DNA of 64,000 bases from Cordylochernes scorpioides (Eukaryota > Arthropoda > Arachnida > Pseudoscorpiones > Chernetidae). The stretch's first letter is position 1. Each line of letters begins with the position of its first letter. The notes under the pieces were generated by a model that was not told where the DNA came from, did not search any database, and saw nothing but the letters and a program-made list of their open reading frames with translations. The stretch lies in contig CP092877.1 in the NCBI GenBank assembly GCA_030710605.1, forward strand, positions 71,259,524 through 71,323,523, written 5' to 3'. A program made the translations under genes and the position numbers. Of this stretch, positions 8,641-64,000 are shown one piece after another.

Positions 8641-8660
8641 TTCAGGAACATTTCACCCAT

Positions 8661-8748: not shown

Positions 8749-8749
8749 A

Positions 8750-38940: not shown

Positions 38941-38962
38941 ACAATAGTAGAGCAGTCTGGAG

Positions 38963-40911
38963 ATTAATTTGGCGAAACTGCTTTCAGGGTTCACCACTAA
39001 TGAGTCAAGCCCTCTCATTCAATAACTTTTACCATTTAAGTAAGGTCTGTAGATATAATATTTGGTGTTATTATTAAAAAAGAAATACACATTGCCAAAA
39101 TTTTAATTGTTACAAATTTTAATGATAGATGGCAATTGAATTTATAAATATATTAAAAAGTATATACACGTTTTTCCAAAATATTTGAAATATTTTAAAA
39201 AGTTTTTAAATATATTATGCAGAGGATAATAAAACAATACTATGAGAATACATAAGCTATCTTTAGGGCATACGTTGTCTTTCAATAGGCCTATCTATGA
39301 AAATGGATAAATTTCTCTTGTTTTTATAGATAGACCTTTGGAAGGGAATATCACGTATATCCAAAAGCTTAACCTGTGTGCAATAAATGCATCTTTAATC
39401 TTTTATCGTTTTTTTATTATTTTTTTAATTTTAACGATTGTATATACCTTTTTCTAATAAATATATTGCGTGTTTCTTTGAGAGAAACAAATTTCCAAAT
39501 AACACTGCTAAAACCTCCCCAAAGAGACACTTTCAAAGAGTGACTTTATTTAACCTAATCTACCTCGAGAAGAGAACAAATTAATAAAAAAACCTTATTA
39601 ATATTATCATAGATAAATTAATATTAAATAACTAATCATAGATATATCCTTATATCAAGAAATGACCAGAAGTATTAATGTTTTTTTTTTTTTTTGGGGG
39701 GGGGGGGGGGGGGGATATCTCATTGGAAGCTTTAATGTATACTTGAATATTTTCAACTATTTTTATAAGCTATGTTTAAAATGACTAAATACCTCTAACA
39801 ATTCCCTTTATTTTAAGAGTTAAAAAATATTATATATATATATATAGTAAAAATTTCAATAATCAATCGGAGTTTTTATAAGATTAAAAAAGGAATATGT
39901 GTGTTCTTCCAAAATAAATATTTAAATGCTAAGAGAATGTTCGTAAATTTTCGTTGAAAAATGTTTTTAAAGTAGGCTGATTATATACTATAATTTTAAC
40001 GAAAGTTTCTATTTTGTTTTTTTTTTTTCCAAAATTAAAAGCAACACTCGTTTTGTTCATTGTAATAAAACGACCCTTTTACAAATACCTTAGTTACAAC
40101 GGGGGGATATGTAAAAAAGGCGAAGAAGTGAGGGATGTTTTAATTCCTGGAGGCAAAATAAAAGTTTGGTATATGCAACTATAAAATTAAATTTTACACA
40201 AATAAATTTACTGGCAATGCGTTTCTTTTTTTAAATCTCTACAGACCTTACTGCAATGATATGATTTAATGAATGAGAGGGCTTGGCTCATCAGTAGTGA
40301 ACCCTCTGTAGAGATTTAAAAAAAAGAAACGCATTGCCAGTAAATTTATTTGTGTAAAATTTTAACGATAGAGGGCAATAAAATTAATTTACTAATATTT
40401 AATAAAATTAAATGTTTGTAAATATATTAGTAATTCTTCTTTTTTTTTATGTGTATATATGTATTTGGAAAATTGGTGTTTTAAAGAAGAGATTTATTTC
40501 AATTTTAATACTATTTATGCAATTTAATAATTCCTTGCCAAAATTATGAAGCGTTAATAATAGAATGTCAAGAAAGAGGAAATTAACTGCAAAGGAACAG
40601 AAACATATTTGCATATATGTTACATATACCTTTGCATACTCTCTCTAGCAGAATTAGTAAATTTGAAGCAAATACGTCATCCCTGGGCGGACAAATCAAC
40701 TACAGTATACACAGCGTATGTAAATAAGAGGTGTCACTATCTCGGCTGATAACTCTTGCCCGAGGTCGAACTGGGTGTGGGAAGTCTTTTACCACCTCCC
40801 GGGGTAGTTGCCCGACTTTTCAGAGACGTTAGAGTAGAATTGTAGATTTGCATAGATTCTAGTGTCGATAATTAGAATTCAAAAGAGCAAGAAACCAGGG
40901 CAAGTCTTCTG
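38963..40911 (+). repeat. Copy A of a long duplication (partner 59641-64000)
   Basis: From GAGATTAATTTGGCGAAACT to GGGCAAGTCTTCTG the order and sequence match 59641-64000, apart from insertions and scattered small differences. Removing the 222-bp MITE insertion leaves 1727 bp. It begins within a GGTTCACCAC-family copy (38942-39075). It contains poly-T(15)/poly-G(19) at 39681-39714, against T(10)/G(12) in copy B. Confidence 0.95.
40193..40414. mobile_element. Foldback MITE of the GGTTCACCAC family, with target duplication
   Basis: Absent from copy B, which has the empty site at ~60871. ATAAAATTAAAT occurs on both sides (40181-40192; 40403-40414). Long arms (TTTACTGGCAATGCG ... TTTAAATCTCTACAG and complement) enclose the family core GGCTTGGCTCATCAGTAGTG. 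Confidence 0.85.
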
Positions 40912-41130
40912 CTGAGATCTAAATAGAAGGAACGGTTAGAAAATCGATGGATTCCATCAAAGAACCAGCCATAGCCAAGTTATGTGGAGATCCGCTTGAT
41001 ATTTCAATGTGCAAATATAATATTGGAATATGGTACTATAGGTGCCTTTCCCACCAACCTATAGCAATGCTATCAAGTAAGAACCTCTATTTCGATAATT
41101 CAATGATCCCTAAGGCTTATAACTCCGTTT

Positions 41131-43353
41131 TTCTATGTCATGTCTGTAATAACAGATCAAACAGGACATGTCTAGCACCCAGTAGATCTGTTACAGACAG
41201 ACAGAGAGAAGAACTAGATGGAGGAGAGAACGTCTAGACCACGCGGTCGATGGTTCTATGTCATGTCTGTAATAACAGATCAAACAGGACATGTCTAGCC
41301 CACAGTAGATCTGTTACAGACAGACAGGGAGAAGAGAGAACTAGATGGAGGAGAGAACGTCTAGACCACGCGGTCGATGGTTCTATGACATGTCTGTAAT
41401 AACAGATCAAACAGGACATGTCTAGCCCACAGTAGATCTGTTACAGACAGACAGGGAGAAGAACTAGATGGAGGAGAGAACGTCTAGAACACGCGGTCGA
41501 TGATTCTATGACATGTCTGTAATAACAGATCAAACAGGACATGTCTAGCCCACAGTAGATCTGTTACAGACAGACAGGGAGAAGAACTAGATGGAGGAGA
41601 GAACGTCTAGAACACGCGGTCGATGGTTCTATGTCATGTCTGTAATAACAGATCAAACAGGACATGTCTAGCACACAGTAGATCTGTTACAGACAGACAG
41701 GGAGAAGAACTAGATGGAGGAGAGAACGTCTAGACCACGCGGTCGATGGTTCTATGTCATGTCTGTAATAACAGATCAAACAGGACATGTCTAGCCCACA
41801 GTAGATCTGTTACAGCCAGACAGGGAGAAGAACTAGATGGAGGAGAGAACGTCTAGAACACGCGGTCGATGGTTCTATGTCATGTCTGTAATAACAGATC
41901 AAACAGGACATGTCTAGCACACAGTAGATCTGTTACAGACAGACAGAGAGAAGAACTAGATGGAGGAGAGAACGTCTAGACCACGCGGTCGATGGTTCTA
42001 TGTCATGTCTGTAATAACAGATCAAACAGGACATGTCTAGCCCACAGTAGATCTGTTACAGACAGACAGGGAGAAGAACTAGATGGAAGAGAGAACGTCT
42101 AGACCACGCGGTCGATGGTTCTATGTCATGTCTGTAATAACAGATCAAACAGGACATGTCTAGCCCACAGTAGATCTGTTACAGACAGACAGAGAGAAGA
42201 ACTAGATGGAGGAGAGAACGTCTAGACCACGCGGTCGATGGTTCTATGACATGTCTGTAATAACAGATCAAACAGGACATGTCTAGCCCACAGTAGATCT
42301 GTTACAGACAGACAGGGAGAAGAACTAGATGGAGGAGAGAACGTCTAGAACACGCGGTCGATGGTTCTATGTCATGTCTGTAATAACAGATCAAACAGGA
42401 CATGTCTAGCCCACAGTAGATCTGTTACAGACAGACAGAGAGAAGAACTAGATGGAGGAGAGAACGTCTAGAACACGCGGTCGATGGTTCTATGACATGT
42501 CTGTAATAACAGATCAAACAGGACATGTCTAGCCCACAGTAGATCTGTTACAGACAGACAGGGAGAAGAACTAGATGGAGGAGAGAACGTCTAGACCACG
42601 CGGTCGATGGTTCTATGTCATGTCTGTAATAACAGATCAAACAGGACATGTCTAGCACACAGTAGATCTGTTACAGACAGACAGGGAGAAGAACTAGATG
42701 GAGGAGAGAACGTCTAGACCACGCGGTCGATGGTTCTATGTCATGTCTGTAATAACAGATCAAACAGGACATGTCTAGCCCACAGTAGATCTGTTACAGA
42801 CAGACAGGGAGAAGAACTAGATGGAGGAGAGAACGTCTAGACCACGCGGTCGATGGTTCTATGTCATGTCTGTAATAACAGATCAAACAGGACATGTCTA
42901 GCCCACAGTAGATCTGTTACAGACAGACAGGGAGAAGAACTAGATGGAGGAGAGAACGTCTAGAACACGCGGTCGATTGTTCTATGTCATGTCTGTAATA
43001 ACAGATCAAACAGGACATGTCTAGCCCACAGTAGATCTGTTACAGACAGACAGGGAGAAGAACTAGATGGAGGAGAGAACGTTTAGAACACGCGGTCGAT
43101 GGTTCTATGACATGTCTGTAATAACAGATCAAACAGGACATGTCTAGCACACAGTAGATCTGTTACAGACAGACAGGGAGAAGAACTAGATGGAGGAGAG
43201 AACGTCTAGACCACGCGGTCGATGGTTCTATGTCATGTCTGTAATAACAGATCAAACAGGACATGTCTAGCACACAGTAGATCTGTTACAGACAGACAGA
43301 GAGAAGAACTAGATGGAGGAGAGAACGTCTAGACCACGCGGTCGATGGTTCTA
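41131..43353. repeat. Satellite array, 18 copies of a ~123-bp unit
   Basis: Units read TTCTATGTCATGTCTGTAAT ... GGACATGTCTAGC ... AGATCTGTTACAGACAGACA ... GAGAACGTCTAGACCACGCG. Copies are nearly identical and vary at a few recurrent positions (GTCATG/GACATG, AGCCCAC/AGCACAC, CAGGGAG/CAGAGAG, GACCACG/GAACACG). Copy 2 has an extra ~5 bp. Each unit has an internal inverted repeat (GTCTGTAATAACAGATC versus GATCTGTTACAGAC). The array ends with TTCTAAAAG at 43353. The short ORF running into the first unit (40947-41237) is not considered real. Confidence 0.97.
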
Positions 43354-43773
43354 AAAGTTTTCTTGACCGTCGCGGCGCCAAGTCTGTCATCGCTTCTTTC
43401 GCCAGCCTCCTCCCTCTGTCTCTCTCTCTCGGTGGCTTATGCAAATTGGTCAAAATGTTATAGCTATGTAAATATAAAAAGTATATATGTATTTTTTTCC
43501 AAATTTATATTTTTTAATTGATGTTTAATTATACTTCTTTGGGGAGTTCAATCATCACTAGGATAATTGAGCTGATGAAGTTTTTAAACATCTATCTTTT
43601 GCTTTCTTTTTCAAGTCATCATCAGAAGTAGGAATGTGATAAAGAGATGGTAACCACTGGTGTAGACACATTATAATGACTAGATAGCCCACAGTTATTA
43701 CGAATGATACTGAAAATTTATTAAAGAATTAAAAATCAATCTCTTCTTACGCCTCTAAAGTTTTCCATATATA

Positions 43774-43987
43774 CACTCATGGACAAAAACATAAGGAAAT
43801 AGAAAATCTTTGATATCGCCGGTCGCTTTTTTTTTTTTGTAAGAAACAGAGACAATTTTATTCACACTTGGCTAACTCGTGTGCCTTCAATAAAGATTAC
43901 TGTTTATCAAATATCTTTCAGAGTAATTGTCTCAATCCTGATATACATGTTCAAAGGTACATCTTCCTTAAGTTTTGTCCATGAATG
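43774..43987. mobile_element. 214-bp Tc1/mariner-type MITE, second full copy
   Basis: TA-flanked CACTCATGGACAAAA ... TTTTGTCCATGAATG, the same length and interior order (AATTTTATTCACACTTGG; CTTCAATAAAGATTACTG) as the copy at 19643. Confidence 0.85.
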
Positions 43988-43989
43988 TA

Positions 43990-44670
43990 CAAGAAGATCA
44001 ATTGTCAGGTGATGCAAATATATTTTTAAAAGGTGAATATCAATATTACTTCTAATTACAACCTTGAAAAAAACTTTGTTTCCTTTTAAAGTACAAATAA
44101 AATGACGATTTTTAATTAAAATTTGAAAAATAGCAACAAAAGAGATCGAAGCTGTGATATTTTATTCAAGACCTTGATATGTGGAACCACTAAGCCAAAA
44201 GCTTGCCCCTTATCCTATCTTGTTTATTTATTTATTACCAGTTAAGACACGCTATATCCGATCTGGATAATTGCGCGTTAAACTATTTACAATAATTCAT
44301 ATGTAGTAGAATAGGTAACAGAATTATCAAAAAAGAAAATAAACAATTGAGAAAAAGAGCATTGAATAAACATATACATTAAACAAATAAGCAACAACTT
44401 AAGTAGATAGAAGAAACCACAAGGTAGTTATTTACAGTATGTTAAGCAATGATGGAAGTTGATTTAATGAAGTTATCTGTAATAATTAGTATCGTGGAGA
44501 GAGAAAGTTGATCAAGTTGAGTTATTTACAATGAGTTATATTCTAAAGTAACTTATTAATTATTTACATTGATGTAAATCAAGTCGCATAGTAGTTCCTC
44601 AAGCTGCATGAAGCTGTCTATTTAATCCGATCTTGGTGTTTGGGTCAGTCTGTGAATATAGTGAGAATAT
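43990..44670. other. AT-rich intergenic
   Basis: No gene seen. A loosely repetitive part (44400-44590) has recurring AGTTATTTACA-like blocks. Confidence 0.4.
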
Positions 44671-44672
44671 GA

Positions 44673-45395
44673 GATACACTCATGGACAAAAGGAAGTTGT
44701 ACCTTACAGTGGTGAACTTACTGGAAAAACCGCTGTGAGGGTTCACCACCGATGCCCTCTCTCTTTCACTTTTTTAATACAGAGAAATATATATCTATAG
44801 AGCCTTTAATTATATATATCTAAAAAAGTAACGTTAAAATATTTCTATTTTTCACGGGAGTGGTATATTGACGGATCTTCACTGTCTGCAATCTCTTCTC
44901 CTCCGAGAACATGGCGAAGAGTTGAATGGCATCAAAAAAATATATATATACTGTGGTGTACTTAATTAATGGTGAGGTACACTCATGACAGAACTTAAGG
45001 AAGTTGTATCTTTTATATCGGAATTCAGACAATAACTCTGAAAGATATTACAGTGACCTTTATTGAAGACACAAGAGATAACCAAGTGTGAACAAAGACT
45101 TTCCATCTCCTTATGTTTTGTCCATGAGTATATTTAAATGGAGGTTCTTAGATAACACAAGCGCAGCACCATTAGGGAACAAGGTAGTGTCAGAGCTTGT
45201 TGATATAGTCAATAGGTCTCCAGTACGTGTTTACATTAAACATTTATATTACGATGCACTACCGCACCATCTGTTATGAAAATTAGCAACTATTTAAGAC
45301 GTTAGGAGGCTTCACCACTGATGAGCCAGGCCCTCCCATTATTTTTCCATTGCAGTAAGAGCAGTAGAAATTGTTTAATTTCAAAAACACGCGTC
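44673..45395. repeat. Cluster: 214-bp MITE end, GGTTCACCAC cores, internally deleted MITE
   Basis: 44673-44708 is a MITE end directly joined to a GGTTCACCAC core (44715-44760: GAAAAACCGCTGTGAGGG). 44980-45128 is the 214-bp MITE in reverse orientation shortened to 149 bp. 45255-45395 is another GGTTCACCAC copy (GCACCATCTGTTATG to GCAGTAAGAGCAGTAG). Confidence 0.65.
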
Positions 45396-45399
45396 TAAA

Positions 45400-46645
45400 A
45401 TAGTTTCTAATTTTCATTAAAAATTGTATATTCAGAACGTAAACATGAGTCCAGAGAACACTACATCAGTACTGTGTCCATGTTATAAACGGCCAAACCT
45501 GTATTCTCTTCCCGACATTTTGGATCTACAGCTATACCTCCTTTACCGAGAGGTTCTACTGTATTTGGGAAAACCAAAAAAGTAAAATATATTGCAATGA
45601 CTAAGATTTAACTCTTCTAGTTAAAATAGCAAAATAAAACGGAGATTGAAGAGGCGTATCTTGTGGGAAGTTTTATTTTGCTATATTAGAATGAGATATT
45701 AAGGATTTTTGAAATGTCAATTTATGTATAATAGATATATTTCATGATAACCATGGTGTGGGTAGGGATTTATAACTGCCTATAATGTAACCCCATGTAT
45801 GGGATCAGTTCTGCACCAACAAGAGGACACCGGTGAGATAGAGCCATGGCGGAGGTAGTATGCCAATAACAAAGTGAAGACACACCGCACCTATAAAAAA
45901 AACGACTAAACAAGAAGCGCCACAAAAACACATCCTGGCGAAGACTCCTGAGGTCCGTCACGTGAATGACCTATCACTCTCCCGTTATTCAGCACGAAAT
46001 TCGGTCAAATTTGAATTTACAAGTCTTCTTGACTGGATCAAATATCATTGAAACACACACACAAAGCTTTATTAACACCACCGGTCTTATACAGATTCAC
46101 CACAGGAAGAAATAAAAATATCATTGAAACCCAACGTATTGTTGATAAAGATTATAGCTATACCTGACTTTGTGTTTCCTATCGAAATATTCCTCTTTTC
46201 GGTGGAACATTCGAGTTTTCTACAATATCAGTTTAGATCGTTTGGAAATTTTTAGGAAAATATGTAAATACTCCATGCGAATGACCCGGGTTCTATCAGA
46301 GTGAATGTTTGCCCGATAACTTTTGCTTTAATTAATATAATTTATTATTATATTACTGTGTGTGTAGTTATGATATGAATATTTTAATAAATTATCAATC
46401 TCTCTCACCCCCAAAAATATGCAAATTAGTTTGTTATTGATCTAATTTGCATAGCATTTTGATAACCATGATAGCATGACTGATTCATAGTTTTGGTAAA
46501 GAGAAAGGTAACAAAGAGAGGTTCATTGAGTCTTTTATCTCTATAAATATGTTGTGTGTTGATGGGCATAAACGGTCGTCTATAAAAAATTCGATTTTGC
46601 ATTCAGAATTTGATTTTGTTTTTCAATCCGTAGCTTAAGTGGAGC
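45400..46645. other. Intergenic with SINE and Helitron fragments
   Basis: 45750-45800 has SINE-body blocks (GATAACCATGGTGTGGGTAG). 46272-46320 on the minus strand reads GGGCAAACATTCACTC then ACCCGGGTCATTCG, a decayed Helitron 3' end. Two ATGCAAAT sites lie at 46420-46450. Confidence 0.4.
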
Positions 46646-46649
46646 TTTA

Positions 46650-46825
46650 AAGAAGATATCTGGTAGATTAAATTGGCGAAACCGCCGGGAGGGTTCACCA
46701 CTGATGAGCCAAGCCCTCCCAATATTTTTTCATCGCAGTAAGGACAGTAGAAATTTGATTTATGTGTAAAAGAAACATTCGCGTCTTAATGTCTTCATTT
46801 GCTGTATGTAGATGGCGTGTTATTG
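46650..46825. repeat. GGTTCACCAC-family copy
   Basis: GGTAGATTAAATTGGCGAAA, GGGAGGGTTCACCACTGATG, CATCGCAGTAAGGACAGTAG and the terminal GTAGATGGCGTG block. Confidence 0.8.
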
Positions 46826-46888
46826 GTTTATATTAAGTGGTATTCTTAACACGAGTAGCATTCCAGTATAGCGCAGGTTGCTGTTTAG

Positions 46889-47031
46889 AAGGAGACAGAG
46901 TCAATTTTGTTCACACTTGGTTATCTCGTGTTGTCCTCAATAAAGGTCACTGTAATATCTTTCAGATTTATTGTCTGAATCCAGATATACATTCTGAAAG
47001 GTACGAATTCCTTAAGTTTTGTCTTTGAGTG
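46889..47031. mobile_element. 214-bp MITE, 5'-incomplete copy
   Basis: GAAGGAGACAGAGTCAATTT to CCTTAAGTTTTGTCTTTGAG with the closing TA. The left terminal repeat is missing. Confidence 0.7.
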
Positions 47032-47297
47032 TATGTCTCTCCATATGTGTAGGATGATTATAAATGATTACAAGAAATATGCGGTACGATGAAAAGCCTG
47101 AATACATACGAAGTTTTTATTCGCTGTTGACTTCTCTGAATACGCACAGGAATCCTGAAAATTTTACCAAATAACCATTTGTTGAAAAAAAAATTTAAAA
47201 CTATATATCCTAAACTCGTATTAAAAATCCGAAAACCAAAACTTTTTAAATTGAATTAAATGAGCTCTTATTTCAATACAAATATTGTGTATCAATG

Positions 47298-47562
47298 TTA
47301 AAGTGAGAACATTAGGCTTCAAGGGATAAGTTTCTTCTTTAAAATTTTATTCACAAAAATCTCTAACTTTCTCGGGCAAGAGGGTCCTTATACAGGAGAA
47401 AATGCGATACAATGTTTAACTTGAATTCACATTTAAATAAAAGTTCCATACATTGTATCCTATTTTCTCCTGTTGAAGTGTTTTCAATCCCGAAAGCTAG
47501 AGAGATCTGAATTATTTTTTTTTTAAGAAACGAATCCCCGCAAGCCTAATGTTTTCACTTTA
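47298..47562. mobile_element. Foldback MITE, ~265 bp
   Basis: TTAAAGTGAGAACATTAGGC at the left is complementary to GCCTAATGTTTTCACTTTAA at the right. ACAGGAGAAAATGCGATACA faces TGTATCCTATTTTCTCCTGT. Confidence 0.8.
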
Positions 47563-47599
47563 ATAAGTGAGTTCTATGGATCCCCTTAGTCTTAGACTT

Positions 47600-47990
47600 A
47601 AGCTTAGAGCTTTCTCTATCCCAAGTACACATAGGTACACATCATGATAAACATGATGGTGTATAGAGGGATTGTGACTACTTGTACTGTAAGCTCACCA
47701 CAAGTCTACACCTGTAGACAATTTAAACAATTTTATTGATTCTTTCAATCAAATTTTACAAAGAAGAAAAAATAAAAGAGTAAAAGGGCATATAAAGTGT
47801 AGGGGGATATATATACAAATGTCTTCAGCAAGGAAGGCTTCCCCACCTTGAGAGAGTCCTCCTCCACCTTCTACACCTGTAGAAGCAGCTCTACCTTTGC
47901 ATTTACAAGGTGACTCGGTCCTGTTTTGTTACTTGCAGTTACTGATGGGGCTGGACATGTGCAAGAACCGGGGCTCATTCTGTGAATCAT
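47600..47990 (-). mobile_element. SINE copy split by a 152-bp insertion
   Basis: SINE-body blocks (ACACATCATGATAAACATGA; CTGTAAGCTCACCACAAG; then ACTTGCAGTTACTGATGGGG and GGACATGTGCAAGAACCGGG) run in the order of the 6.3-kb copy. They are interrupted at TCTACACCTGTAG, which appears on both sides (47705-47717 and 47870-47882). Confidence 0.7.
47718..47869 (-). mobile_element. 152-bp retro-insertion with 13-bp target duplication
   Basis: It lies between two copies of TCTACACCTGTAG inside a SINE. On the minus strand it ends ...AATCAATAAAATTG, an AATAAA-bearing tail, which suggests a 5'-truncated LINE or processed RNA. The source is not identified. Confidence 0.6.
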
Positions 47991-48059
47991 TTTATAATTT
48001 AAACAACAAAAGATACAATTAGTAGGTTATATAGATTGAATTTTTGCCGGAAAGATAAA

Positions 48060-48430
48060 GGTCACTTTTCCCGTCAAAATAGACGTCAAAGCTATACGCC
48101 ATCTATTGACCGTCTCCGTAAATTTAGCGGCTTTAGGTCGGTTACAAAGCCACAACACCAGCTTTGGCAAACTAAGAAGCGCCCACCTAGAAACCATGGT
48201 TTCGGGCTAATGGCCCTCGTCAGTCTAGGGTGGACTTTAATTCCATGAGATAAACACAAAGGATCTAAGGGAATCTTCACAATCCGCCAAAGAGGTGTTT
48301 AGCTTGCAAAGTGGCCAAGACAAATCTATGGCCAAAATATTACACTACACTTTGATTTTAGCCAAAAGGCCGAGAAGCGATATGGCCAAAATATAGATGA
48401 ATATAGAAGGTTATAGATCAGAATTACTAT
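48060..48430. repeat. Dispersed repeat copy (partner 26437-26720)
   Basis: Shared blocks in order: CAAAATAGACG, CCAGCTTTGGCAAA, GAAGCGCCCACCT, ATTCCATGAGAT, AAAGTGGC, CCAAAATATAGAT. This copy is interrupted by the U2 fragment. Confidence 0.75.
48341..48381 (-). pseudogene. U2 snRNA 5' fragment (41 nt), retrotransposed
   Basis: The minus strand reads ATCGCTTCTCGGCCTTTTGG followed by CTAAAATCAAAGTGTAGT. This is the conserved 5' end of U2 starting exactly at nucleotide 1, with one substitution in the region that reads GATCAA in U2. It stops at about nucleotide 40, just after the branch-point recognition sequence GTGTAGT. ATGGCCAAAATAT flanks it on both sides (48328-48340; 48382-48394), a 13-bp target duplication. 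Confidence 0.92.
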
Positions 48431-48431
48431 G

Positions 48432-49485: not shown

Positions 49486-49489
49486 TTAT

Positions 49490-49720
49490 TTGATTAGCTC
49501 ACCCAGTAGCTCGATACTTAGAGATCCGAGTTCGAAACTGCATAGAGATATTTTTGTTTCAATGGACTCTTATACATGTCCAACCCCACCGCCTGCACGT
49601 AACCAAATAAGGCTCTGCCACCTCCTGTAAGCTGTTTCTAAAAGACGTAGTTATGTGGTTTACCTACAGTATAAACCATCATGACCCAATGGCCTGTGCT
49701 AGAGTGTGATATCTTAGTAT
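49490..49720 (+). mobile_element. tRNA-derived SINE, plus-strand copy
   Basis: The head contains TAGCTCACCCAGTAGCTCGA and a B box CCGAGTTCGAAACTGC (49528-49543). The body follows with ATGTCCAACCCCACCGCC, CACGTAACCAAATAAGGCTC and TACAGTATAAACCATCATGA. Confidence 0.65.
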
Positions 49721-49721
49721 A

Positions 49722-51710: not shown

Positions 51711-51718
51711 AATATATA

Positions 51719-53290: not shown

Positions 53291-55200
53291 CAATAGTTAC
53301 AAAAACAACAAAGCGAGTGGGGGGGGGGGGCAAAGGTGGCGTGATCGTAGCCAACCAATAGGAGAGCGCCATTCCAAAAAAAAAGCAAACGGTGACAGAG
53401 ATGAAAAAGAATTGATGACGCTCGTAACTGTATATAGAATATAAAGAAATTTCTGTTGTTTTTGATCATCTTGAGGATAATACTATGTTAACGCAGTCGT
53501 GGTTAAGAATCTTGAAAGAATAATAATAAAAATAGTTTTGATCAGATATTGCTTTAATTGAACTTATGGAATATATAAAAAAAAAACATAATTTGATTAA
53601 AGTACATCCTGGCTTAAGGCGAGTAGAACAAAGAAAAACAAAAGATTATTTACATAATGTACAAAATATTTGAGCCGGCCATCGGGAAACAACAACAATG
53701 AGTTTTTATAGGGGAAGCGTGACCTCTGGCGGTCTATTTAACAGAATATTTGAATCTATGAAATATAATTTTAAATAAAATAATATTTTAATATAACATA
53801 TATATAGACGAATGGCGATATCAAAGATTTTCTACTTCCTTAAGTTTTGTTTATGAGTGTATATTGGTAGATTATAGTGAGTTATTGGTTTTAATGTTTC
53901 TGGAGTGTGTATGTATGGAGATCAGCTGGTTTCTCCTGTTCAGATGGCATTACCATCTTGCCATTGTATCTGACATTACTGTTCTGTTTGGAGTCAGGTT
54001 CCTGATTTATTGACTGGGTCTTAGCCCGATCTGGCTCCAAGGTTTGAAGTTTATGAAAGAAATGTTTCATTCTCTATAAACCGCTTCAGTTCTGGTGTCA
54101 ACAACTGAGGAATGAAGGAAACCGTTTGGACCCGTGGGTCGTGTCAGTTTCAGGGCGAGACAAATTCTCTGTATGTCTAATTATAAACTGAGGGAGGGAA
54201 TCTCACCTCTCTGAGATTACGATGAAGCTTTTTTTACCCCCCACTTTAAAAATTGCTGTAAAAAAAAAATTAAAACACTGGAACTCTCTTCGTTAGGGTT
54301 CTGAATATTGTTATTTTATGGTAAAATAAGTACTATGAGATTTGTGTAATGTGTGAATATAGAATGACTGAAGGTCTTTTTTTTTTCTTTTTTTTTTTTT
54401 TGTATAAGACTGTGGTGTGTGTTTAGGATGTTTTATTGATTTAGGGTTCTAGATATGACATCCCAGCGTTAAATGCTATCTCCATGGTTAAAAGATAGTC
54501 CATTGAAATAAGCTCATTGTTGGAATTTTTTGTTGCGATTGGGTGCTTCCAGAATCAGATTTTCATCGTCTGGATTATATTTGAAAAATACATAACCAAA
54601 GTATCTCGTCTATTAATGTAACTCTGAGGTGTTGCATAGCTGTGAGATCCATTTATTTTATTTTGTCATCAATACCTCCGAGGCTATTGGCGATTGGTTA
54701 CAGTCTATCGGGGAAACACCGATAACTGTTGATATATATGTCTATATACATATAGAAAGTAAATATGCACATAAGGTGGTATTTCTAACAAATTCTAATG
54801 GGATAATGTCTGAAATTTGCTTTAAATTTTATATAAAAATATTCTAATTCGAAGAGCAATCCTCTGAAAAAACCGCGGAATCAGCCGCCATTACTAAACT
54901 TTTTTTTTGCGGGCAGACGTGGGCGGAAGTCCAGTCAGACAAAGCGCAGCCGAGTTCCGGTGGCACACAAAAAGTTGCAGACGACCACCAACCTCTGGCT
55001 CCCTATGTAAAAACACATGCAGGTAAAAAAGCAAGGTTTTACATGTGGAAGTCTTCAACGAACTCTGTCGGTAGTTATGCAAATACATCCAGCAGATTGC
55101 CTTCTTACCGCCATCTAGTGTGTGATTCGAGTGATTTAATACAAAAATAATATTTCAGGTATAGGCTTTAGCAATGTATAGAATTTCTTCATTTTGTTCT
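53290..55200. other. Intergenic with small fragments
   Basis: 53313-53330 is a G run. 53355 has a CCAATAGG box. 53815-53861 is one end of the 214-bp MITE. 54840-55000 is GC-richer and unique. 55100 carries CGCCATCTAGTG. No gene is recognised. Confidence 0.4.
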
Positions 55201-55208
55201 TCACACGC

Positions 55209-55966
55209 AGGAGTGTAGTGTAGGGTACGGGAGTGTAGTGTAGGGTACGGGAGTGTAGTGTAGGGTACGGGAGTGGAGTGTAGGGTACGGGAGTGGAGTG
55301 TAGATACGGGAGTGTAGTGTAGGGTACGGGAGTGTAGTGTAGGTACGGGAGTGTAGTGTAGGGTACGGGAGTGTAGTGTAGGGTACGGGAGTGTAGTGTA
55401 GGTACGGGAGTGGAGTGTAGGGTACGGGAGTGGAGTGTAGGGTACGGGAGTGTAGTGTAGGGTACGGGAGTGTAGTGTAGGGTACGGGAGTGTAGTGTAG
55501 GTACGGGAGTGTAGTGTAGGGTACGGGAGTGTAGTGTAGGGTACGGGAGTGTAGTGTAGGGTACGGGAGTGGAGTGTAGGTACGGGAGTGTAGTGTAGGG
55601 TACGGCAGTGTAGTGTAGGGTACGGCAGTGTAGTGTAGGGTACGGGAGTGTAGTGTAGGGTACGGGAGTGTAGTGTAGGTACGGGAGTGTAGTGTAGGTA
55701 CGGGAGTGTAGCGTAGGGTACGGGAGTGTAGTGTAGGGTATGGGAGTGTAGTGAAGGGTACGGGAGTGTAAGTTTAGGCCGCGGGAGTGTAGTGTAGGGT
55801 ACGGGAGTGTAGTGTAGGTACGGGAGTGTAGTGTAGGGTACGGGAGTGTAGTGTAGGGTACAGGAGTGTAATGTAGGCCGCGGGAATGTAGTGTAGGGCG
55901 CGGGAGTGTAGTGTAGGGTACGGGAGTGTAGTGTAGGGTACGGGAGTGTAGTGTAGGTACGGGAGC
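55209..55966. repeat. Minisatellite 1: ~20-bp unit, G/T-rich on plus strand
   Basis: The unit is GGGTACGGGAGTGTAGTGTA (20 bp), with an 18-bp variant lacking two G's. About 38 copies, some with GGAGTG or GGCAGTG substitutions and a few diverged units near 55770-55900. It gives long minus-strand open frames (TLHSRTLHYTPVPYTT type) only because the unit lacks stops in all frames. Confidence 0.97.
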
Positions 55967-56089
55967 CAGACTTGGCGCGCGGCCACCGTATAGATCCGGC
56001 GGGAGAGGGACAATGCTCCTCGAGTCCATCCAGCATCGATTTTGGCGGATGTCTTTTTGATTGCTTCGTGTCTGCCCAGGGTCTCCTAT

Positions 56090-57150
56090 ATACACACGTG
56101 TCTCCACACGCACGTGACTCCAGACATTCACACACGTGTCTCCACACACACCGGACTCCAGACATTCACATACGTCACTCCACACACACCGGACTCCAGA
56201 CATTCACACACGTATCTCCACACACACCGGACTCCAGACATTCACATACGTCACTCCACACACACCGGACTCCAGACATTCACATACGTCACTCCACACA
56301 CACCGGACTCCAGACATTCACACACGTATCTCCACACACACCGGACTCCAGACATTCACATACGTCACTCCACACACACCGGACTCCAGACATTCACATA
56401 CGTCACTCCACACACACCGGACTCCAGACATTCACACACGTATCTCCACACACACCGGACTCCAGACATTCACACACGTATCTCCACACACACCGGACTC
56501 CAGACATTCACACACGTATCTCCACACACACCGGACTCCAGACATTCACATACGTCACTCCACACACACCGGACTCCAGACATTCACATACGTCACTCCA
56601 CACACACCGGACTCCAGACATTCACATACGTCACTCCACACACACCGGACTCCAGACATTCACACACGTATCTCCACACACACCGGACTCCAGACATTCA
56701 CACACGTGTCTCCACACACACCGGACTCCAGACATTCACACACGTGTCTCCACACACACCGGACTCCAGACATTCACATACGTCACTCCACACACACCGG
56801 ACTCCAGACATTCACACACGTATCTCCACACACATTGGACTCCAGACATTCACACACGTATCTCCACACACGTGTCTCCACAAACGTGCCTCCAGACATT
56901 CACACACCTGACTCCACACGAGCGTCTCCAGACATAAACACACGTGCCTTCAGACATTCACATATCTGACTCCACACGAATTGTCTCCAAGATAAACACA
57001 CGTGTCTTCAGACATGAACACACGTGTCTCCAGTCACACACGACTCCGCACAATCACACGCGTATCTTCAGACATGAAGACACGTTTCTATAGATACACG
57101 TGACTCCGCACATTCAAAAATGTGTCTCCAGACATAAACACACGTGTATT
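56090..57150. repeat. Minisatellite 2: 40-bp unit, C/A-rich on plus strand
   Basis: Two alternating 40-bp units differ in CACACACGTATCTCCACACA versus CACATACGTCACTCCACACA, both followed by CACCGGACTCCAGACATT. About 20 regular copies to ~56900, then decaying copies to ~57150. The three overlapping open frames of 277-321 codons are repeat artefacts. Confidence 0.97.
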
Positions 57151-57159
57151 CAGACAAAA

Positions 57160-57530
57160 TCAAACCTATATTTTGACCCACAAATGTTCCTAGAACACAC
57201 ATGGCTATTGTTACGCCTAAATGTGCTCGGACACATATACACATGACGCTTAGCACATGTGTTCCAGTCAGTGTGTGTGCAAATAAAATGTTGAAATAAG
57301 AGAGCAATAGAAACTTTAAAACCCAATTTCCATAATGTATGCGGCACCTTTTAAACTTCACACTGTTCTTTAGGCTCTCTTTTGGTTTATCTTTACCGTG
57401 ACATCATCGAATCGTGTATTTGCCGTTCGGATTGAAGGAGGGTATTCTAACTCCCTCAAGAGACTTACGTACTTATGCAAATTTTATATAGTACAAATTT
57501 TACTTTGGTCACGCTGGAAAATAAAAGCAT
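57160..57530. other. Intergenic, nothing recognised
   Basis: No gene, RNA or repeat family recognised. One ATGCAAAT site at 57475. Confidence 0.4.
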
Positions 57531-57535
57531 CTTCT

Positions 57536-57777
57536 GATCGTGAAACTGAGCGTTGCTGATGGCTTGCGCCATCTCTTGGAATAAATATCAACTAATCGGT
57601 TTTTTGTTGTTAATTATTTCAGCCTGAAATGTTATTGGATTTTCTTGATTATTTATATTTGTCCAATACTCTGGGTTCATTTAAAAAATGAACGATTAAT
57701 GAATATTTAATCCGACAGATGTGTGTGTGTGTGGTGCAAACCATCAGCAACTTTAAGTTGCACGTTCAGGAGATGCT
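57536..57777. mobile_element. Palindromic MITE (7.7-kb family), diverged
   Basis: GCATCTTCTGATCGTGAAAC and the complement AAGTTGCACGTTCAGGAGATG at the ends, with GCGCCATCTCTTGGAATAAA inside. A (TG)n insertion lies at 57720-57733. Confidence 0.7.
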
Positions 57778-57849
57778 TTTTTTTTTTCTTCATATATACA
57801 ATCGTGTTCCAAAAAAAAAGGAGTACCTCTCCCTTTAATTATACATTAG

Positions 57850-58395
57850 TACAATGTATTATGTTTATCTTCTTGTAAAAAAAACTTGACATATCCACAA
57901 GCCGCTCTCCTGTACTGATAAAGGCCATAGCTCGAAACCGCGGTATACAGGTTGTTGGCTTTTTGTCTGTATTTGCTATAACTGGTGTTGTAGCTCATTC
58001 TTTATCTTCACTAGTAATTTATTTAACTAGGGTGATGTATAGTGCCAACGTTCTGAAGCATATTTAAAGGGAGAGGTGATTCTTTTGGTACAATAAATAT
58101 TATCCACTCCTGCAACTTTATCTTTTATACATCCATAACACTAAACACCACACAAATATTTATCATTAATGTGAAAAAATAGTACAAATGTGATATTATA
58201 CTGGGATAAGGTGCATAAATTATGAAAAAGGAATCTTCTTATCGTGCAACTGAGAGATTGAAACTGATTTTTATTTCAAAGTCTATATAAGATTATATAA
58301 GATTAAATACAGAATAAATATAAATATGAATAAATATGATTATATAATGATAAATATACTGAAAGTTGCTTTCATAATTTATCATTAAACTTCTG
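57850..58395. repeat. Half copy of the 7.7-kb MITE family, with flank
   Basis: 58172-58256 reads AAATAGTACAAATGTGATAT, GGATAAGGTGCATAAATT, then GAATCTTCTTATCGTGCAAC, the reverse of the 7.9-kb flank. Only one arm is present. The remainder is AT-rich without genes. Confidence 0.6.
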
Positions 58396-58623
58396 GTAGG
58401 TAGACAGCACCTTGGTCCAGCTGGTCCATTCACTGAGGATTTTCGTGGGGAAAATAATACATTGGTTTCTCCTTGTCACAGGCCTGGTTAGTACTTGGGA
58501 GGGTGACAACTTTGCTGTAGGTTATTCTGTACGTGGAGTACATATAGTTAGTTTGGTGTTTTCTGCTTCAATATACCGAATACATAATAGTAAGTTTCGA
58601 ATAAAAGAAACATAACGCATAAA

Positions 58624-58698
58624 AGTCGGTAGACGAGTGGGTAACACTCTCCATTCCCGACAGCCATTAACCAGGATTGAAACCCGCGTTAACATTTT
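58624..58698 (+). repeat. tRNA-like sequence, probably a SINE head
   Basis: AGACGAGTGGGTAACACTC resembles an A box with D arm, and CCAGGATTGAAACCCGCG resembles a B box with T arm, at tRNA-like spacing. The acceptor stem is not closed. Confidence 0.5.
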
Positions 58699-58790
58699 GT
58701 TTAATATGTGAATAACCTTCATATATTATTCACTGTTTCAATTATCATAAACTAGGTTGCTCTTGTTGAGCGGTACCTAATATAGTGATT

Positions 58791-59224
58791 TTGAATAAAA
58801 GAAACTAGATTTGTGAGTAAATAGTTTATTTATTTAATTAAAAAGGCATATATTGGATCAAAATATCATTTATTTTACCAAAATTTCAGTTGGCCGAACG
58901 CCAACCTTTATCAAGGTGTTAGAACAGATTGATGTGTGTCTTTATTTATGTTTCTTTATTATGAAGTGTTGCAAGCTCTCGAGCAAATTTTGATTTTCAA
59001 CATGCAAATCCGAAACCAAATGAAAAGACATCGGATCACAGACTATATTACAGTTTAATATAAATATTTATACTTAACCGTAATATAGTCTGTCCCATGC
59101 TCTGATAACATATCTCTTCATTTGGTTTTGGATTTGCATGTTGAAGAGCAAAATTTTCTCTAAAGCTTGCAACACCACATAATAAAGAAGCTATTTACCC
59201 ACAAAGCTAGTTTCTCTTATTCGA
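58791..59224. mobile_element. Foldback MITE, with a module inserted in its left arm
   Basis: GAATAAAAGAAACTAGATTT and the right-hand AAGCTAGTTTCTCTTATTC are complementary. Inner arms CAACATGCAAATCCGAAACC and GGTTTTGGATTTGCATGTTG continue it. The left arm is split by the insertion at 58833-58940. Confidence 0.8.
58833..58940 (+). mobile_element. 108-bp monomer of the 37.3-kb module with 8-bp target duplication
   Basis: TTAATTAAAAAGGCATATAT through AACGCCAACCTTTATCAAGG matches the left arm of 37312-37599. TTTATTTA flanks it (58825-58832; 58941-58948). The opposite arm of the host foldback lacks it. Confidence 0.8.
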
Positions 59225-59344
59225 ATACTTCTGGGTGACAATCCCTCACATAATAGAAAGTTTATTCATTTTCAGAATCTGTTTTCAACCTCAAGGTGAA
59301 GTGAGATAATGTAGTTTTACGGCTTACTACCCAAAATTCGAAAC

Positions 59345-59540
59345 TATTATAGACGTGTATGATTCTTTTAAAAATTAAACAATTTCTACTGCCCTTACTG
59401 CAATGGAAAAATTAATGGGAGGGCCTGGCTCATCAGTGGTGAACCCTCCCAGCGGTTTCGCCAGTTTAATCTACCACTGGGAAGGTTCACCACTGTTGAG
59501 CCAGGCCCTCCCATTAATTTTTCCATTGTAAGTAAGGGCA
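59345..59540. repeat. GGTTCACCAC-family foldback copy running into the gap
   Basis: TTTCTACTGCCCTTACTGCA, GGGAGGGCCTGGCTCATCAG, GCCAGTTTAATCTACCACTG, then the same blocks inverted (GAGCCAGGCCCTCCCATTAA) up to the N run. Confidence 0.85.
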
Positions 59541-59640
59541 NNNNNNNNNNNNNNNNNNNNNNNNNNNNNNNNNNNNNNNNNNNNNNNNNNNNNNNNNNNN
59601 NNNNNNNNNNNNNNNNNNNNNNNNNNNNNNNNNNNNNNNN
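59541..59640. other. Assembly gap, exactly 100 N
   Basis: Exactly 100 N is the usual placeholder for a gap of unknown size. Copy B of the duplication starts at the very next base. Confidence 1.
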
Positions 59641-60895
59641 GAGATTAATTTGGCGAAACTGCTTTCAGGGTTCACCATTGATGAGTCAAGCTCTCTCATT
59701 CAATAACTTTTTTCCATTGCAGTAAGGTCTGTAGATATAATATTTGATGTTATTATTAAAAAAGAAATACACATTGCCAAAATTTTAATTGTTACAAATT
59801 TTAATGATAGATGGCAATTGAATTTATAAATATATTAAAAAGTTTTTAACGTTTTTCCAAAAATTTTGAAATATTTTAAAAAGTTTTAATATATATTATG
59901 TTAAGGAATATAAAACAATACTATGAGAATACATAAGCTATCTTTAGGGCATACGTTGTCTTTCAATAGGCCTATCTATGAAAATGGATAAATTTCTCTT
60001 GTTTTTATAGATAGACCTTTGGAAGGGAACATCACGTATATCCAAAAGCTTAACCTGTGTGCAATAAATGCATCTTTAATCTTTTATCGTTTTTTTTATT
60101 ATTTTTTTAATTTTAACGATTGTATATACCTTTTTTCTAATAAATATATTGCGTGTTTCTTTGAGAGAAACAAATTTCCAAATAACACGGCTAAAACCAC
60201 CCCAAAGAGACACTTTCAAAGAGTGACTTTATTTAACCTAATCTACCTCGAGAAGAGAACAAATTAATAAAAAAACTTATTAATATTATCATAGATAAAT
60301 TAATATTAAATAACTAATCATAGATATATCCTTATATCAAGAAATGACCAGAAGTATTAATGTTTTTTTTTTGGGGGGGGGGGGATATCTCATTGGAAGC
60401 TCTAATGTATACTTGAATATCTTCAACTGTTTTTATAAGCTATGTTTAAAATGACCAAATACCACTAACAATTCCCTTCATTTTAAGAATTAAAAAATAT
60501 GATATATATATATAGTAAAAAATTCAAGAATCATTCGGAGTTTTTATAAGATTAAAAAAGGAATATGTGTGTTCTTCCAAAATAAATATTTAAATGCTAA
60601 GAGAATGTGCGTAAATTTTCGTTGAAAAATGTTTTTAAAGTAGGCTGATTATATATTTGCCTATAATTTTAACGAAAGTTTCTATTTTGTTTTGTTTTTA
60701 TTTTTTTCCAAAATTAAAAGCAACACTCGTTTTGTTCATTGTAATAAAACGACCCTTTTACAAACACCTTAGTTACAACGGGGGGATATGTAAAAAAGGC
60801 GAAGAAGTGAGGAATGTTTTAATTCCTGGAAGCTAAATAAAAGTTTGGTATATGCAACTATAAAATTAAATGTCTGTAAATATATTAGTAATTCT

Positions 60896-62459
60896 AATAC
60901 TTCGAAACAAATCATCTAACCCTGAACGAATCAAAATCCAAGATAATGGTTTTCCGAAATGGTGGCCGCCCTGCAAAATCGGACAAATGGTTCTGGGGAG
61001 ACCAACTGTTGACAGTGACATCGAAATATCTCTATCTTGGCTATCCCCTCACAACAACAATCTCGTTTAGTCAAGTGGCTTCATACTTTAAAGGCAAAGC
61101 GCTTGCAGCTACCGGCGAAGTATGGAAAATTATGGAGAAATCCAGGTTGAATTCATTTGGTTCATCAATGAAACTATTAGACTCGATTATCCTGTCAACT
61201 CTGCTGTATTCTGCTCCAATTTGGGCAAACGAAAAGTACAAAATCTTGGACCAAATTCAGAATAACTATGTCCGACGACTATTGAACTTGCCGAGTAACA
61301 CACCAGGCTACATACTACGCATGGAAACCGGACGCTTCTCACTAGGAGTCACAGCAACCAAACTAATTCTAAAGTTCTGGTTAAGAATATTAAAAATGGA
61401 AAAATCCAGATTGCCCGCAATCTGTCTAGCCCAATTATGGGAAACATCCACTCTAACGAATACCTTTATAGGTTTTACTGAAAATTTAATGAATATCCTA
61501 AACTCAACTGGATTCATGTGGTTAAAGAATTGTTCAGACCCCAATATTCTACAGAAAGCAATACCTCAAATTATCAGAATCACTATAGAACAGTCTATCC
61601 AAACCGATCAATCAAGAATAACCAATTCGAAGCTGCACACACACTACAAATATTTACATAAAACATTCGCAGCAGAGAACTATCTACTAAGTGAACTCCC
61701 ACTGCCGACTAAACGCCTCATTGCGCAATTGAGAATTCTATTTGTTTTATATCGAGAAGACCATATAAAATATCTAAGGACAGAAGACTTGTATTGCCAA
61801 CTATGCAAAAATAGAACCGAAAATGAATTAGAACATTATATATTTGAATGCAAGCCTCTTGACACGGAAAGAAAAATACTCTTTTCTAAGATAGGCCATA
61901 CACACTTCACATTATATTCTTTATTATCCAACTTTATAGACAATAGTTCAGTAGCTCTGAATCTATATAACTTCCATAAAAATGCTGAAAAAAAGAAAGA
62001 CTTAACCGAACATCCAAACATACCAAAAAATTCTGTTTGATGAGAAGAACAGAACCAACATCCAATTATTTGTTTAGGCAGATACGATAAGTTAACCCCC
62101 ACATTGATAAAACGGTGTTTACCTTACAACCCTGAACACTCGGATTTTCCTGGAAAATCTCTTGAAGATTTCTTGAAAAAGCCATGGTCCACTTGTGCTA
62201 TGTGAGCAGAAGAACTTAAATTGACTTGTTCCATATGTAAATACCTGTTTTCTTTCCTCTTTTCGCTCTCCACTTCTCCCATCCATATTTCCAAAAATTT
62301 TTAATTTTTTTTTTTAATTCTTCTTATTTCTTTATTCTTTCTTATAATCTGTATATATTTACCATATGTATATATTCTTTCACCATTTTTATTTCCCACT
62401 TTCTCCGTTTTGTAACCCCAAGGAGAATCCTCTGTAAGACCTGTGTGTCTTAATAAAGG

Positions 62460-62491
<32 letters not shown>
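60896..62491 (+). mobile_element. 5'-truncated LINE with (TG)n tail and 14-bp target duplication
   Basis: ATATTAGTAATTCT occurs at 60882-60895 and 62492-62505. The 3' end has AATAAAGGCTTTTG and then about 13 TG units (62464-62490). The insert is 1596 bp, cut at its 5' end within the reverse transcriptase. Confidence 0.95.
60898..62040 (+). CDS. LINE ORF2 C-terminal part: end of reverse transcriptase and zinc-knuckle domain
   Basis: The frame is open from the truncation point to TGA 62040 (about 380 codons) with no internal stop. The first Met is at 60946, but coding continues upstream (HLTLNESKSKIMVFRNGG), the segment that follows the catalytic YxDD box in APE-type LINEs. Next come KYLYLGYPLTTTISF and AATGEVWKIM (RT thumb region), SIILSTLLYSAPIWAN, IQNNYVRRLLNLPSNTPGYI, and a C-terminal Cys/His knuckle CQLCKNRTENELEHYIFEC. 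The YxDD box and the endonuclease are missing, so no activity is expected. The intact frame indicates a recent insertion. The clade is not certain. Confidence 0.9.
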   Translation, partial: YFETNHLTLNESKSKIMVFRNGGRPAKSDKWFWGDQLLTVTSKYLYLGYPLTTTISFSQVASYFKGKALAATGEVWKIMEKSRLNSFGSSMKLLDSIILSTLLYSAPIWANEKYKILDQIQNNYVRRLLNLPSNTPGYILRMETGRFSLGVTATKLILKFWLRILKMEKSRLPAICLAQLWETSTLTNTFIGFTENLMNILNSTGFMWLKNCSDPNILQKAIPQIIRITIEQSIQTDQSRITNSKLHTHYKYLHKTFAAENYLLSELPLPTKRLIAQLRILFVLYREDHIKYLRTEDLYCQLCKNRTENELEHYIFECKPLDTERKILFSKIGHTHFTLYSLLSNFIDNSSVALNLYNFHKNAEKKKDLTEHPNIPKNSV

Positions 62492-62523
62492 ATATTAGTA
62501 ATTCTTCTTTTTTTTTATGTGTA

Positions 62524-63543
62524 CAGTGTACTCCGCTTATAACGAAGTCGCATTATCCATGACAATCACTTTGTTATATCCGAAGTTTGTTATATCCGCA
62601 GTTGGAAAAAAAATGGTTTGTACCAATAATTTTATTTACTATTCAACTCAAAAGAGCAACACAAAGATCAATAACAACCTCATCAGGTGTTTTTGGAGAA
62701 GTAGTTTGTGATTTTCTTTTGACATTTAGAAGTCAGTAACAAGTGCTGAACACTCTTTTCGATGTTGTCCAAGTCTGACAGATGCCTATGAAGAGACTTG
62801 GACTCATCCTGACATTGAAGAAACAATCGCAGAGTTTGAATGCTCTCCAAGACCTCTTTTGGATGCGGAATGTGGACAATTGGGTCTACTTCTTCATCAA
62901 CTTGGTCCGTTTCTTCTTCTTCTTTTGCTTGAAGAATGCTCTCGACAATTTCTACATCGGATAACATGGCATTTGTAACGACGTCATTGTCAGCGTCAGC
63001 ATAAGAATCGAAATCCATCTCTAACGGTATTTTTAAAACTTCTTTCATGCGATCGAAGAGGCTTTGTTGCTCCCACATTTGTGTTGCAGGCTGTGGTGTA
63101 TCCAATGGAGAACTGACATCGGACTTAATAATTCCACTATGATGCCAACAGTTGGAAATTGTCGCTGGAAGCACATCATTCCATGCTAAAGATATAATAT
63201 CCTACAGATATATATATTATGATGTACTAGAGCGCCATCTGTTATCAAATTATAAAATTATAAAAAGAATATTACGCCTCTAAAATAGTTTTATAATATA
63301 TATATTATGCATAATATATTAGTCAATTATAATGGTAAATGAGAAAACTTCGTTATAAACGGATAAAATAAAAATTTATACATGCAAATCACTTCGTTAT
63401 AAGCGAAAATTCTTTATATCCGACTTCGCAATATCCAGAGTTCTTTTAATGGTTTAAGCCCTTCTTTTCTTTCGTGCAGACAATTTCATTCGCTATATGC
63501 GGAATTTCGCTATAACCGACTTTGTTATAAGCGGAGTACACTG
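62524..63543 (-). mobile_element. Tigger/pogo-type element, 1020 bp, internally deleted
   Basis: TA-flanked ends CAGTGTACTCCGCTTATAAC and the complement GTTATAAGCGGAGTACACTG. Related TTATATCCGAAG-type sub-terminal repeats (GACTTCGCAATATCC) lie inside. Copy A has the empty TA site at ~40455. A terminal piece of the GGTTCACCAC family (GCGCCATCTGTTATC) lies at 63231, inside the element. Confidence 0.93.
62683..63174 (-). pseudogene. Tigger-type transposase, C-terminal 163 codons
   Basis: The frame starts LPATISNCWHHSGI, the typical segment near the end of the DDE region in pogo/Tigger/jerky-type proteins. It continues with an acidic tail (AKEEEETDQVDEEVDPIVH) and ends QKKITNYFSKNT with a stop. 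The N-terminal CENP-B-like DNA-binding domain and the catalytic aspartates are missing: the sequence right of 63174 is a different AT-rich insert up to the terminal repeat. It is thus an internally deleted, non-autonomous copy. Confidence 0.8.
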
Positions 63544-64000
63544 TATATATGTATGTGGAAGTTGGTGTTTTAAAGAAGAGATTTATTTTAATTTTAATAC
63601 TATTTATGCAATTTAATAATTCCTTGCCAAAATTATGAAGCGTTAATAATAGAATGTCAAGAAAGAGGAAATTAACTGCAAAGGAACAGAAACATATTTG
63701 CATATATGTTACATATACCTTTGCATACTCTCTCTAGCAGAATTAGTAAATTTGAAGCAAATACGTCATCCCTGGGCGGACAAATCAACTACAGTATACA
63801 TAGAGTATGTAAATAAGAGGTGTCACTATCTCGGCTGATAACTCTTGCCCGAGGTCGAACTGGGTGTGGGAAGTCTTTTACCACCTCCCGGGGTAGATGC
63901 CCGACTGTTCAGAGACGTTAGAGTAGAATTGTAGATTTGCATAGATTCTAGTGTCGATAATTAGAATTCAAAAGAGCAAGAAACCAGGGCAAGTCTTCTG

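What the first reader, a model, noticed from the sequence alone, without database searches (positions are those of the whole stretch)
38963..64000. Two copies of the same 1.73-kb locus 20 kb apart, one abutting a 100-N gap
38963-40911 and 59641-64000 agree in order and nearly in sequence. Net length after removing the three insertions is 1727 versus 1728 bp. Copy B begins at the first base after an unsized gap, and both copies run towards the satellite side. It is either a real recent duplication or, equally likely, the other haplotype placed in tandem by the assembler. In the second case the LINE, Tigger and MITE insertions would be segregating polymorphisms.
Basis: partly seen in the sequence, partly recalled or inferred. 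Interest (0 to 1): 0.75.

Follow-up and report, generated by a model that had tools for sequence, protein, structure and literature searches.

The report
Unmerged alternative haplotypes stacked by assembler
The apparent duplication is most likely an assembly error: three versions of one stretch of chromosome, with their own jumping-gene insertions, were laid end to end across unsized gaps instead of being merged.

Summary
The pairing is real but cut short by the window edge. With about 130 kb more downstream and 20 kb upstream, copy A is 38960-59540, ending at the last base before the 100-N gap. Copy B starts at the first base after it, on a 54.6-kb contig that ends at a second 100-N gap, after which a third version (C) starts. 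A fifth contig, after two more gaps, begins at exactly the base that follows A's last base in homologous coordinates. So contigs 1 and 5 are one sequence (alpha), opened to take contigs 2-4; contigs 2 and 4 (beta) appear to be opened likewise for contig 3 (gamma). The layout alpha|beta|gamma|beta|alpha is a scaffold artefact, not a tandem duplication. The versions differ by 4-5% substitutions and by clean transposon insertions. Close near-copies occur elsewhere too, direct and inverted; one pair on C4 also starts at a 100-N gap. Without reads, allele versus nearby paralogue stays open. Low biological interest; a useful warning about this assembly.

The parts
38960..59540 (+). copy A: the end of contig 1 (version alpha, left part); colinear with contig 2 from that contig's first base
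   Evidence: ends at the last base before the gap
59541..59640 (.). 100-N scaffold gap, first of four seen (others at window coordinates 114247-114346, 167351-167450 and 179732-179831, outside the window)
59641..64000 (+). copy B: the first 4.36 kb of contig 2 (version beta), which continues past the window to 114246
40193..40413 (.). MITE-like insertion in A (221 bp including the second copy of a 12-bp AT-rich target-site duplication), absent from B
60896..62491 (+). LINE-like insertion in B with a (TG)n tail, flanked by a 13-14 bp target-site duplication; empty site in A
   Evidence: its 380-aa ORF has no Pfam match at 0.01
62524..63543 (.). Tigger-like insertion in B (inverted ends CAGTGTACTCCGCTTATAACGAAG..., TA duplication); empty site in A
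   Evidence: its 172-aa ORF has no Pfam match at 0.01
41131..43353 (+). 123-bp satellite, 18.0 copies in A; about 3 copies in B at 64220-64595; no other place matched in the genome search
46058..46115 (.). short insertion in A (about 73-76 bp with an 18-bp duplicated flank), absent from B and C
51719..53026 (-). mariner-like element in A (TA duplication, identical 46-bp inverted ends, Mos1-type HTH in its ORF); empty sites in B and C

Best explanation
This is a false (haplotypic) duplication. One locus was assembled into three divergent versions: alpha (contig 1 up to 59540, continued by contig 5 from 179832), beta (contig 2, 59641-114246, continued by contig 4, 167451-179731) and gamma (contig 3, 114347-167350). 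They were too different (4-5% substitutions plus kilobase transposon insertions and minisatellite length changes) to be merged. Scaffolding then cut alpha and beta and placed the versions end to end with 100-N gaps, as alpha1|beta1|gamma|beta2|alpha2. The window shows the first of these joins. Shown: the three versions, their ends at the gaps, and the seamless fit of alpha1 to alpha2. Shown less sharply: the fit of beta1 to beta2, which differs from gamma by tandem repeat units. Inferred: that the versions are alleles (from a pooled or polyploid sample, or with one true paralogue among them), that divergence was what prevented merging, and that a Hi-C-type scaffolder made the cuts.
For: Contig-end overlaps: A ends 0 bp from contig 1's end and B starts 0 bp from contig 2's start; B's homology to C runs to contig 2's last base, 114246 = C 165054; A's homology to C starts at contig 3's first base, 114347. 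Contig 5 starts at B 79241 where contig 1 stopped at B 79240; the joined flanks align to B and C with nothing lost or gained at the join. Contig 2's end plus contig 4's start fit C apart from tandem-repeat units. Contig 4's last 1656 bp match C15:71497885-71499532 at 98% over their full length, so beta lies inside alpha if no further gap intervenes. Copy number, each with 40 candidates scored: a probe at 53820-55150 has 3 long matches (A, B, C); a probe near contig 2's end has long matches at B, C and D only; the 1351 bp left of A have 1 full-length match. Divergence: AB 4.80% of 13519, BC 4.94% of 21437, AC 4.49% of 11325; B-D 3.99% of 18320, C-D 5.04% of 8854. Clean empty sites, including that of a 5158-bp LTR element in C, with identical 327-bp LTRs, absent from B. 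Elsewhere: the C4 inverted pair starts at the first base after a 100-N gap (2.23% of 13103); the C18 pair is 99.9% identical over 3967 bp; 6 of 8 close-hit sites checked have duplicated flanks, and 9 of the 37 transposon hits of one probe lie in these; 20 adjacent pairs within 200 kb among 115 transposon hits against about 0.32 expected.
Against: Three versions exceed the two that a single diploid can carry. Divergence of 4-5% is high for alleles, and in 500-bp windows it ranges from 0.4% to 24%, the worst windows probably being misaligned repeats. Identity is often under the 95% used for such overlaps in Kelley and Salzberg. 2 of the 8 close-hit sites checked had no duplicated flanks, and at a third (C4 near 78 Mb) only 1048 of 1501 bases are covered while two control pairs cover 694 and 711. 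The excess may partly be real clustering of transposons. Only C15 and C4 were checked for gaps at the homology boundary. No reads, depth or k-mers could be examined.
Confidence: 0.86

Rival explanations
1. A true local segmental duplication: alpha, beta and gamma are paralogues (units of 50 kb or more) somewhere near one another, and only their order and the cuts in the scaffold are wrong.
For: Three distinct versions at about equal distance, more than one diploid holds; the block is rich in minisatellites, which favour unequal exchange.
Against: No junction from the end of one unit to the start of the next appears in the stretches fetched; the sequence left of A has no second full-length match; at both probed positions there are three long matches among the scored candidates; similar pairs occur at other loci on several chromosomes and in both orientations.
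Confidence: 0.11
2. A real tandem array in the order shown (A then B then C), with large unassembled stretches hidden in the 100-N gaps.
For: Direct orientation and adjacency of the copies.
Against: Contigs 1 and 5 abut base to base in homologous coordinates although three contigs lie between them. For independent contig ends in a 20-kb block that coincidence is roughly one in ten thousand or less (inference).
Confidence: 0.02
3. Chance similarity or a dispersed repeat family shared by the two places.
For: The first 100-200 bp of the block and the MITE do belong to dispersed repeat families.
Against: The rest is colinear over 20 kb; the non-repeat probe has three long matches among the scored candidates of the 2.62-Gb genome.
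Confidence: 0.01

Closest known systems
Duplicated overlapping contigs and duplicated contained contigs (Kelley and Salzberg 2010, PMC2864568; passages and section 14 seen)
   Same: Homologous ends of adjacent contigs overlapping to within 300 bp of both ends (here 0-8 bp); alternative versions contained in or overlapping a longer contig and placed next to it.
   Different: Identity here is about 76-98% per aligned block, most blocks below their 95%; three versions instead of two; alpha and beta appear cut and nested; mate-pair test not possible.
False heterotype duplication (Ko et al. 2022, PMC9516828; passages seen)
   Same: Copies on one scaffold separated by an assembly gap; divergent versions of one region.
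   Different: Read depth, read-pair discordance and k-mer multiplicity could not be tested.
Undercollapsed heterozygosity in Hi-C scaffolds of Aedes aegypti from about 80 pooled siblings (PMC6421076; passages seen)
   Same: [quoted passage not shown] misjoined contigs split.
   Different: There the alternative haplotypes were merged afterwards; whether this sample was pooled, or scaffolded by Hi-C, is unknown.

Membership tests
Overlapping-contig false duplication (DOC, Kelley and Salzberg) | copies on separate contigs placed adjacently, or with one false contained contig between | tested here: met
   A and B on contigs 1 and 2, B and C on contigs 2 and 3, split by 100-N gaps
[quoted passage not shown]
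   A-B: 0 and 0 bp; B-C: 0 bp at contig 2's end and 8 bp from contig 3's start
Overlapping-contig false duplication (DOC, Kelley and Salzberg) | identity over 95% | tested here: not met
   90-97% with indels in the main A-B blocks; substitutions alone 4.5-5%
Overlapping-contig false duplication (DOC, Kelley and Salzberg) | mate pairs fit better after merging | not testable with these tools
   no reads
False heterotype duplication (Ko et al.) | assembly gap between the duplicated pair on one scaffold | tested here: met
   also on C4
False heterotype duplication (Ko et al.) | half read depth on each copy | not testable with these tools
   no reads
False heterotype duplication (Ko et al.) | haploid-specific (one-copy) k-mers | not testable with these tools
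   no reads
True tandem segmental duplication | a sequenced junction between the end of one unit and the start of the next | tested here: inconclusive
   none in the stretches fetched; each change from one version to another lies at a 100-N gap; 143877-155876 and 205877-240009 were not read

The most novel reading that the evidence does not exclude
The source really carries three or more versions of this locus: either a recent triplication of a minisatellite-rich block of 50 kb or more under ongoing transposon attack, or a polyploid or extremely diverse (4-5%) organism whose haplotypes differ by recent mariner, LTR and LINE insertions.
Probability: 0.12. Interest if true: 0.35.

Novelty: not a real feature. 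Interest (0 to 1): 0.15.

Why it matters
As biology it is ordinary. As a caution it matters: in this 2.62-Gb assembly, nearby duplicates turned up at several other sampled loci, in direct and inverted orientation. Counts of local duplications, gene or repeat copies and satellite loci from it are therefore suspect until alternative versions are purged. The same fact turns the copies into a small catalogue of recent transposon insertions with their empty sites.

Tried and rejected
A real tandem array was the first alternative once copies C and D appeared; it was dropped when contig 5 proved to continue contig 1 base to base. A gene-driven duplication was looked for only in part: Pfam on 8 selected window ORFs matched 2, both mariner-type transposases. 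The ORFs of 110 aa or more in 59641-143876 were read by eye, not searched: most look like minisatellite frames or transposon frames, and several short ones stay unexplained. The copy-number probe for C4 fell on a dispersed mariner and says nothing about copy number there. COX1 was sought to place the organism; one partial match with in-frame stops came back, probably a nuclear fragment, and the species stays unknown. ARAGORN (bacterial code) found no tRNA in the window; Rfam found one U6. Papers: PMC2864568 (passages and section 14), PMC9516828 (passages), PMC7203741 (passages), PMC6421076 (passages); the others were seen in search listings only. The usual gap sizes of particular scaffolders are recalled and were not used as evidence; the names LINE, Tigger, MITE and the reading of the LTR element's class rest on structure and recall.

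In one search I counted the hits of three of the five probes whose repeat hits were listed (not), 37, 39 and 39 hits outside the window's own copies, one start coordinate per hit. In one search the weaker hits within or next to the same mariner copies were left out; the C18 clusters were kept. In one search the 10 pairs come from 8 sites picked by eye because their hits lay close together, so 6 of 8 is not a genome-wide rate. The A-B divergence leaves out the block 40452-41508, which the chaining dropped because of the satellite.

Full report
A 38960-40192 matches B 59641-60871 at 94.5% and A 40452-40911 matches B 63542-64000 at 98.3%, same order and strand. Its net lengths are right to a few bases (1731 and 1728 bp by my count).

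The window is G000:C15:71259524-71323523 in a genome of 2.62 Gb and 24 contigs. With neighbouring stretches fetched (about 130 kb downstream and 20 kb upstream), copy A is the whole of 38960-59540 and ends at the last base before the gap, matching B 59641-79240, which starts at the first base after it. The 123-bp satellite lies inside the block: 18.0 copies in A, about 3 in B. A 246-bp probe from it gave 18 matches, 16 in A and 2 in B, and none elsewhere in that search.

Four 100-N gaps cut the region into five contigs: 1 (to 59540), 2 (59641-114246), 3 (114347-167350), 4 (167451-179731) and 5 (from 179832). Contig 3 is a third version, C: A 45381 onwards matches it from its first base, and B 66658-91172 matches C 114355-143876, the limit of the stretch then held. 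B's last base, 114246, matches C 165054. The stretch 143877-155876 was not fetched.

The decisive result is the layout. Contig 5 begins at the base homologous to B 79241, and contig 1 ended at B 79240. With the two flanks set side by side, the alignment to B and C passes the junction with no base lost or gained. Contigs 1 and 5 are therefore one sequence, alpha, opened to receive contigs 2-4. Contig 2's end and contig 4's start in turn fit C, apart from units of a tandem repeat, so they probably form a second version, beta, opened to receive contig 3, gamma. Contig 4's last 1656 bp match C15:71497885-71499532 at 98%, inside contig 5 if no further gap lies in 205877-240009, which was not read.

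Copy number agrees, with the limit that only 40 candidates per search were scored. A 1331-bp probe from A has three long matches, A, B and C. A 2701-bp probe near contig 2's end has long matches at B, C and a place further on, D. The 1351 bp just left of A have one full-length match. No unit-to-unit junction was seen in any stretch fetched.

Substitution divergence is AB 4.80% (13519 aligned bases), BC 4.94% (21437), AC 4.49% (11325), BD 3.99% (18320) and CD 5.04% (8854). In the three-way alignment of 11309 counted columns, 239, 350 and 343 sites set A, B and C apart, and the nearest pair changes along the block. Windows over repeats are poorly aligned and inflate the extremes.

The versions differ by clean insertions with empty sites: a MITE-like element in A and not in B; a mariner in A and in neither B nor C; a LINE-like element with a (TG)n tail and a Tigger-like element in B and not in A; a 5158-bp LTR element (5-bp duplication AATAT, identical 327-bp LTRs) in C at 128650-133807 and not in B. 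Alpha cannot be read at that last site, because contig 5 lacks B 80627-81641. The mariner ORF has a Mos1-type HTH; the LINE-like and Tigger-like ORFs had no Pfam match at 0.01, so those names rest on structure.

Is this special to the locus? On C4, found only because it shares a repeat, an inverted pair (106364815-106379027 and 106405900-106387498) has its second copy starting at the first base after a 100-N gap, with 2.23% substitutions over 13103 bases. On C18 two stretches 88 kb apart are 99.9% identical over 3967 bp; no gap was looked for there. Of 8 sites picked because transposon hits lay close together, 6 have duplicated flanks, with best blocks 95.8-99.3% identical, including one triple on C15 near 51 Mb and one inverted pair on C7; 2 (both on C2) do not. 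The weakest of the six is C4 near 78 Mb, 1048 of 1501 bases. Six control pairs from distant sites shared 48-711 of 1501 bases. Of the 37 repeat hits, 9 lie in flank-verified duplicates. Among 115 repeat hits of three probes, 20 adjacent pairs lie within 200 kb, where random placement gives about 0.32; that count may include real transposon clustering.

Together these favour a false duplication of the overlapping or contained-contig kind (PMC2864568; PMC9516828; PMC7203741). The unusual point is three versions. [quoted passage not shown] One true paralogue among the three is the alternative. Without reads I cannot decide between them. The identity criterion of Kelley and Salzberg (over 95%) is not met throughout, and depth and k-mer criteria could not be tested. 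The filing is therefore 'works like a false haplotypic duplication', with layout criteria met and read criteria open.

Noticed in passing
window 51719-53026: Mariner-like element with identical 46-bp inverted ends, present in A and absent from B and C: a recent insertion.
   Followed up: yes
window coordinates 128650-133807 (downstream of the window): LTR retrotransposon of 5158 bp with identical 327-bp LTRs and a 5-bp duplication, in version C and not in B: recent insertion, described only.
   Followed up: partly
window 8647-8750, + strand: U6 snRNA match, 69 bits against a gathering score of 44; outside the duplicated block.
   Followed up: no
G000:C4:106364815-106405900 (L027, L030-L033): Inverted pair of near-copies separated by a 100-N gap, the second starting at the first base after it.
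   Followed up: yes
G000:C15:50986100-51145300 (L041-L043): Another local triple: three 1.5-kb stretches 67-158 kb apart, 95.8-97.2% identical pairwise.
   Followed up: partly
window 55210-57156, and 82151-100212 downstream of the window: The block holds several different minisatellites (units of about 20, 38 and 60 bp in the window; more downstream) whose lengths differ among the versions.
   Followed up: partly
L056 (G000:C3:89667005-89667340): The one COX1 match found in the assembly (9 candidates scored) is partial, with in-frame stops; the mitochondrial genome may not be among the 24 contigs.
   Followed up: no
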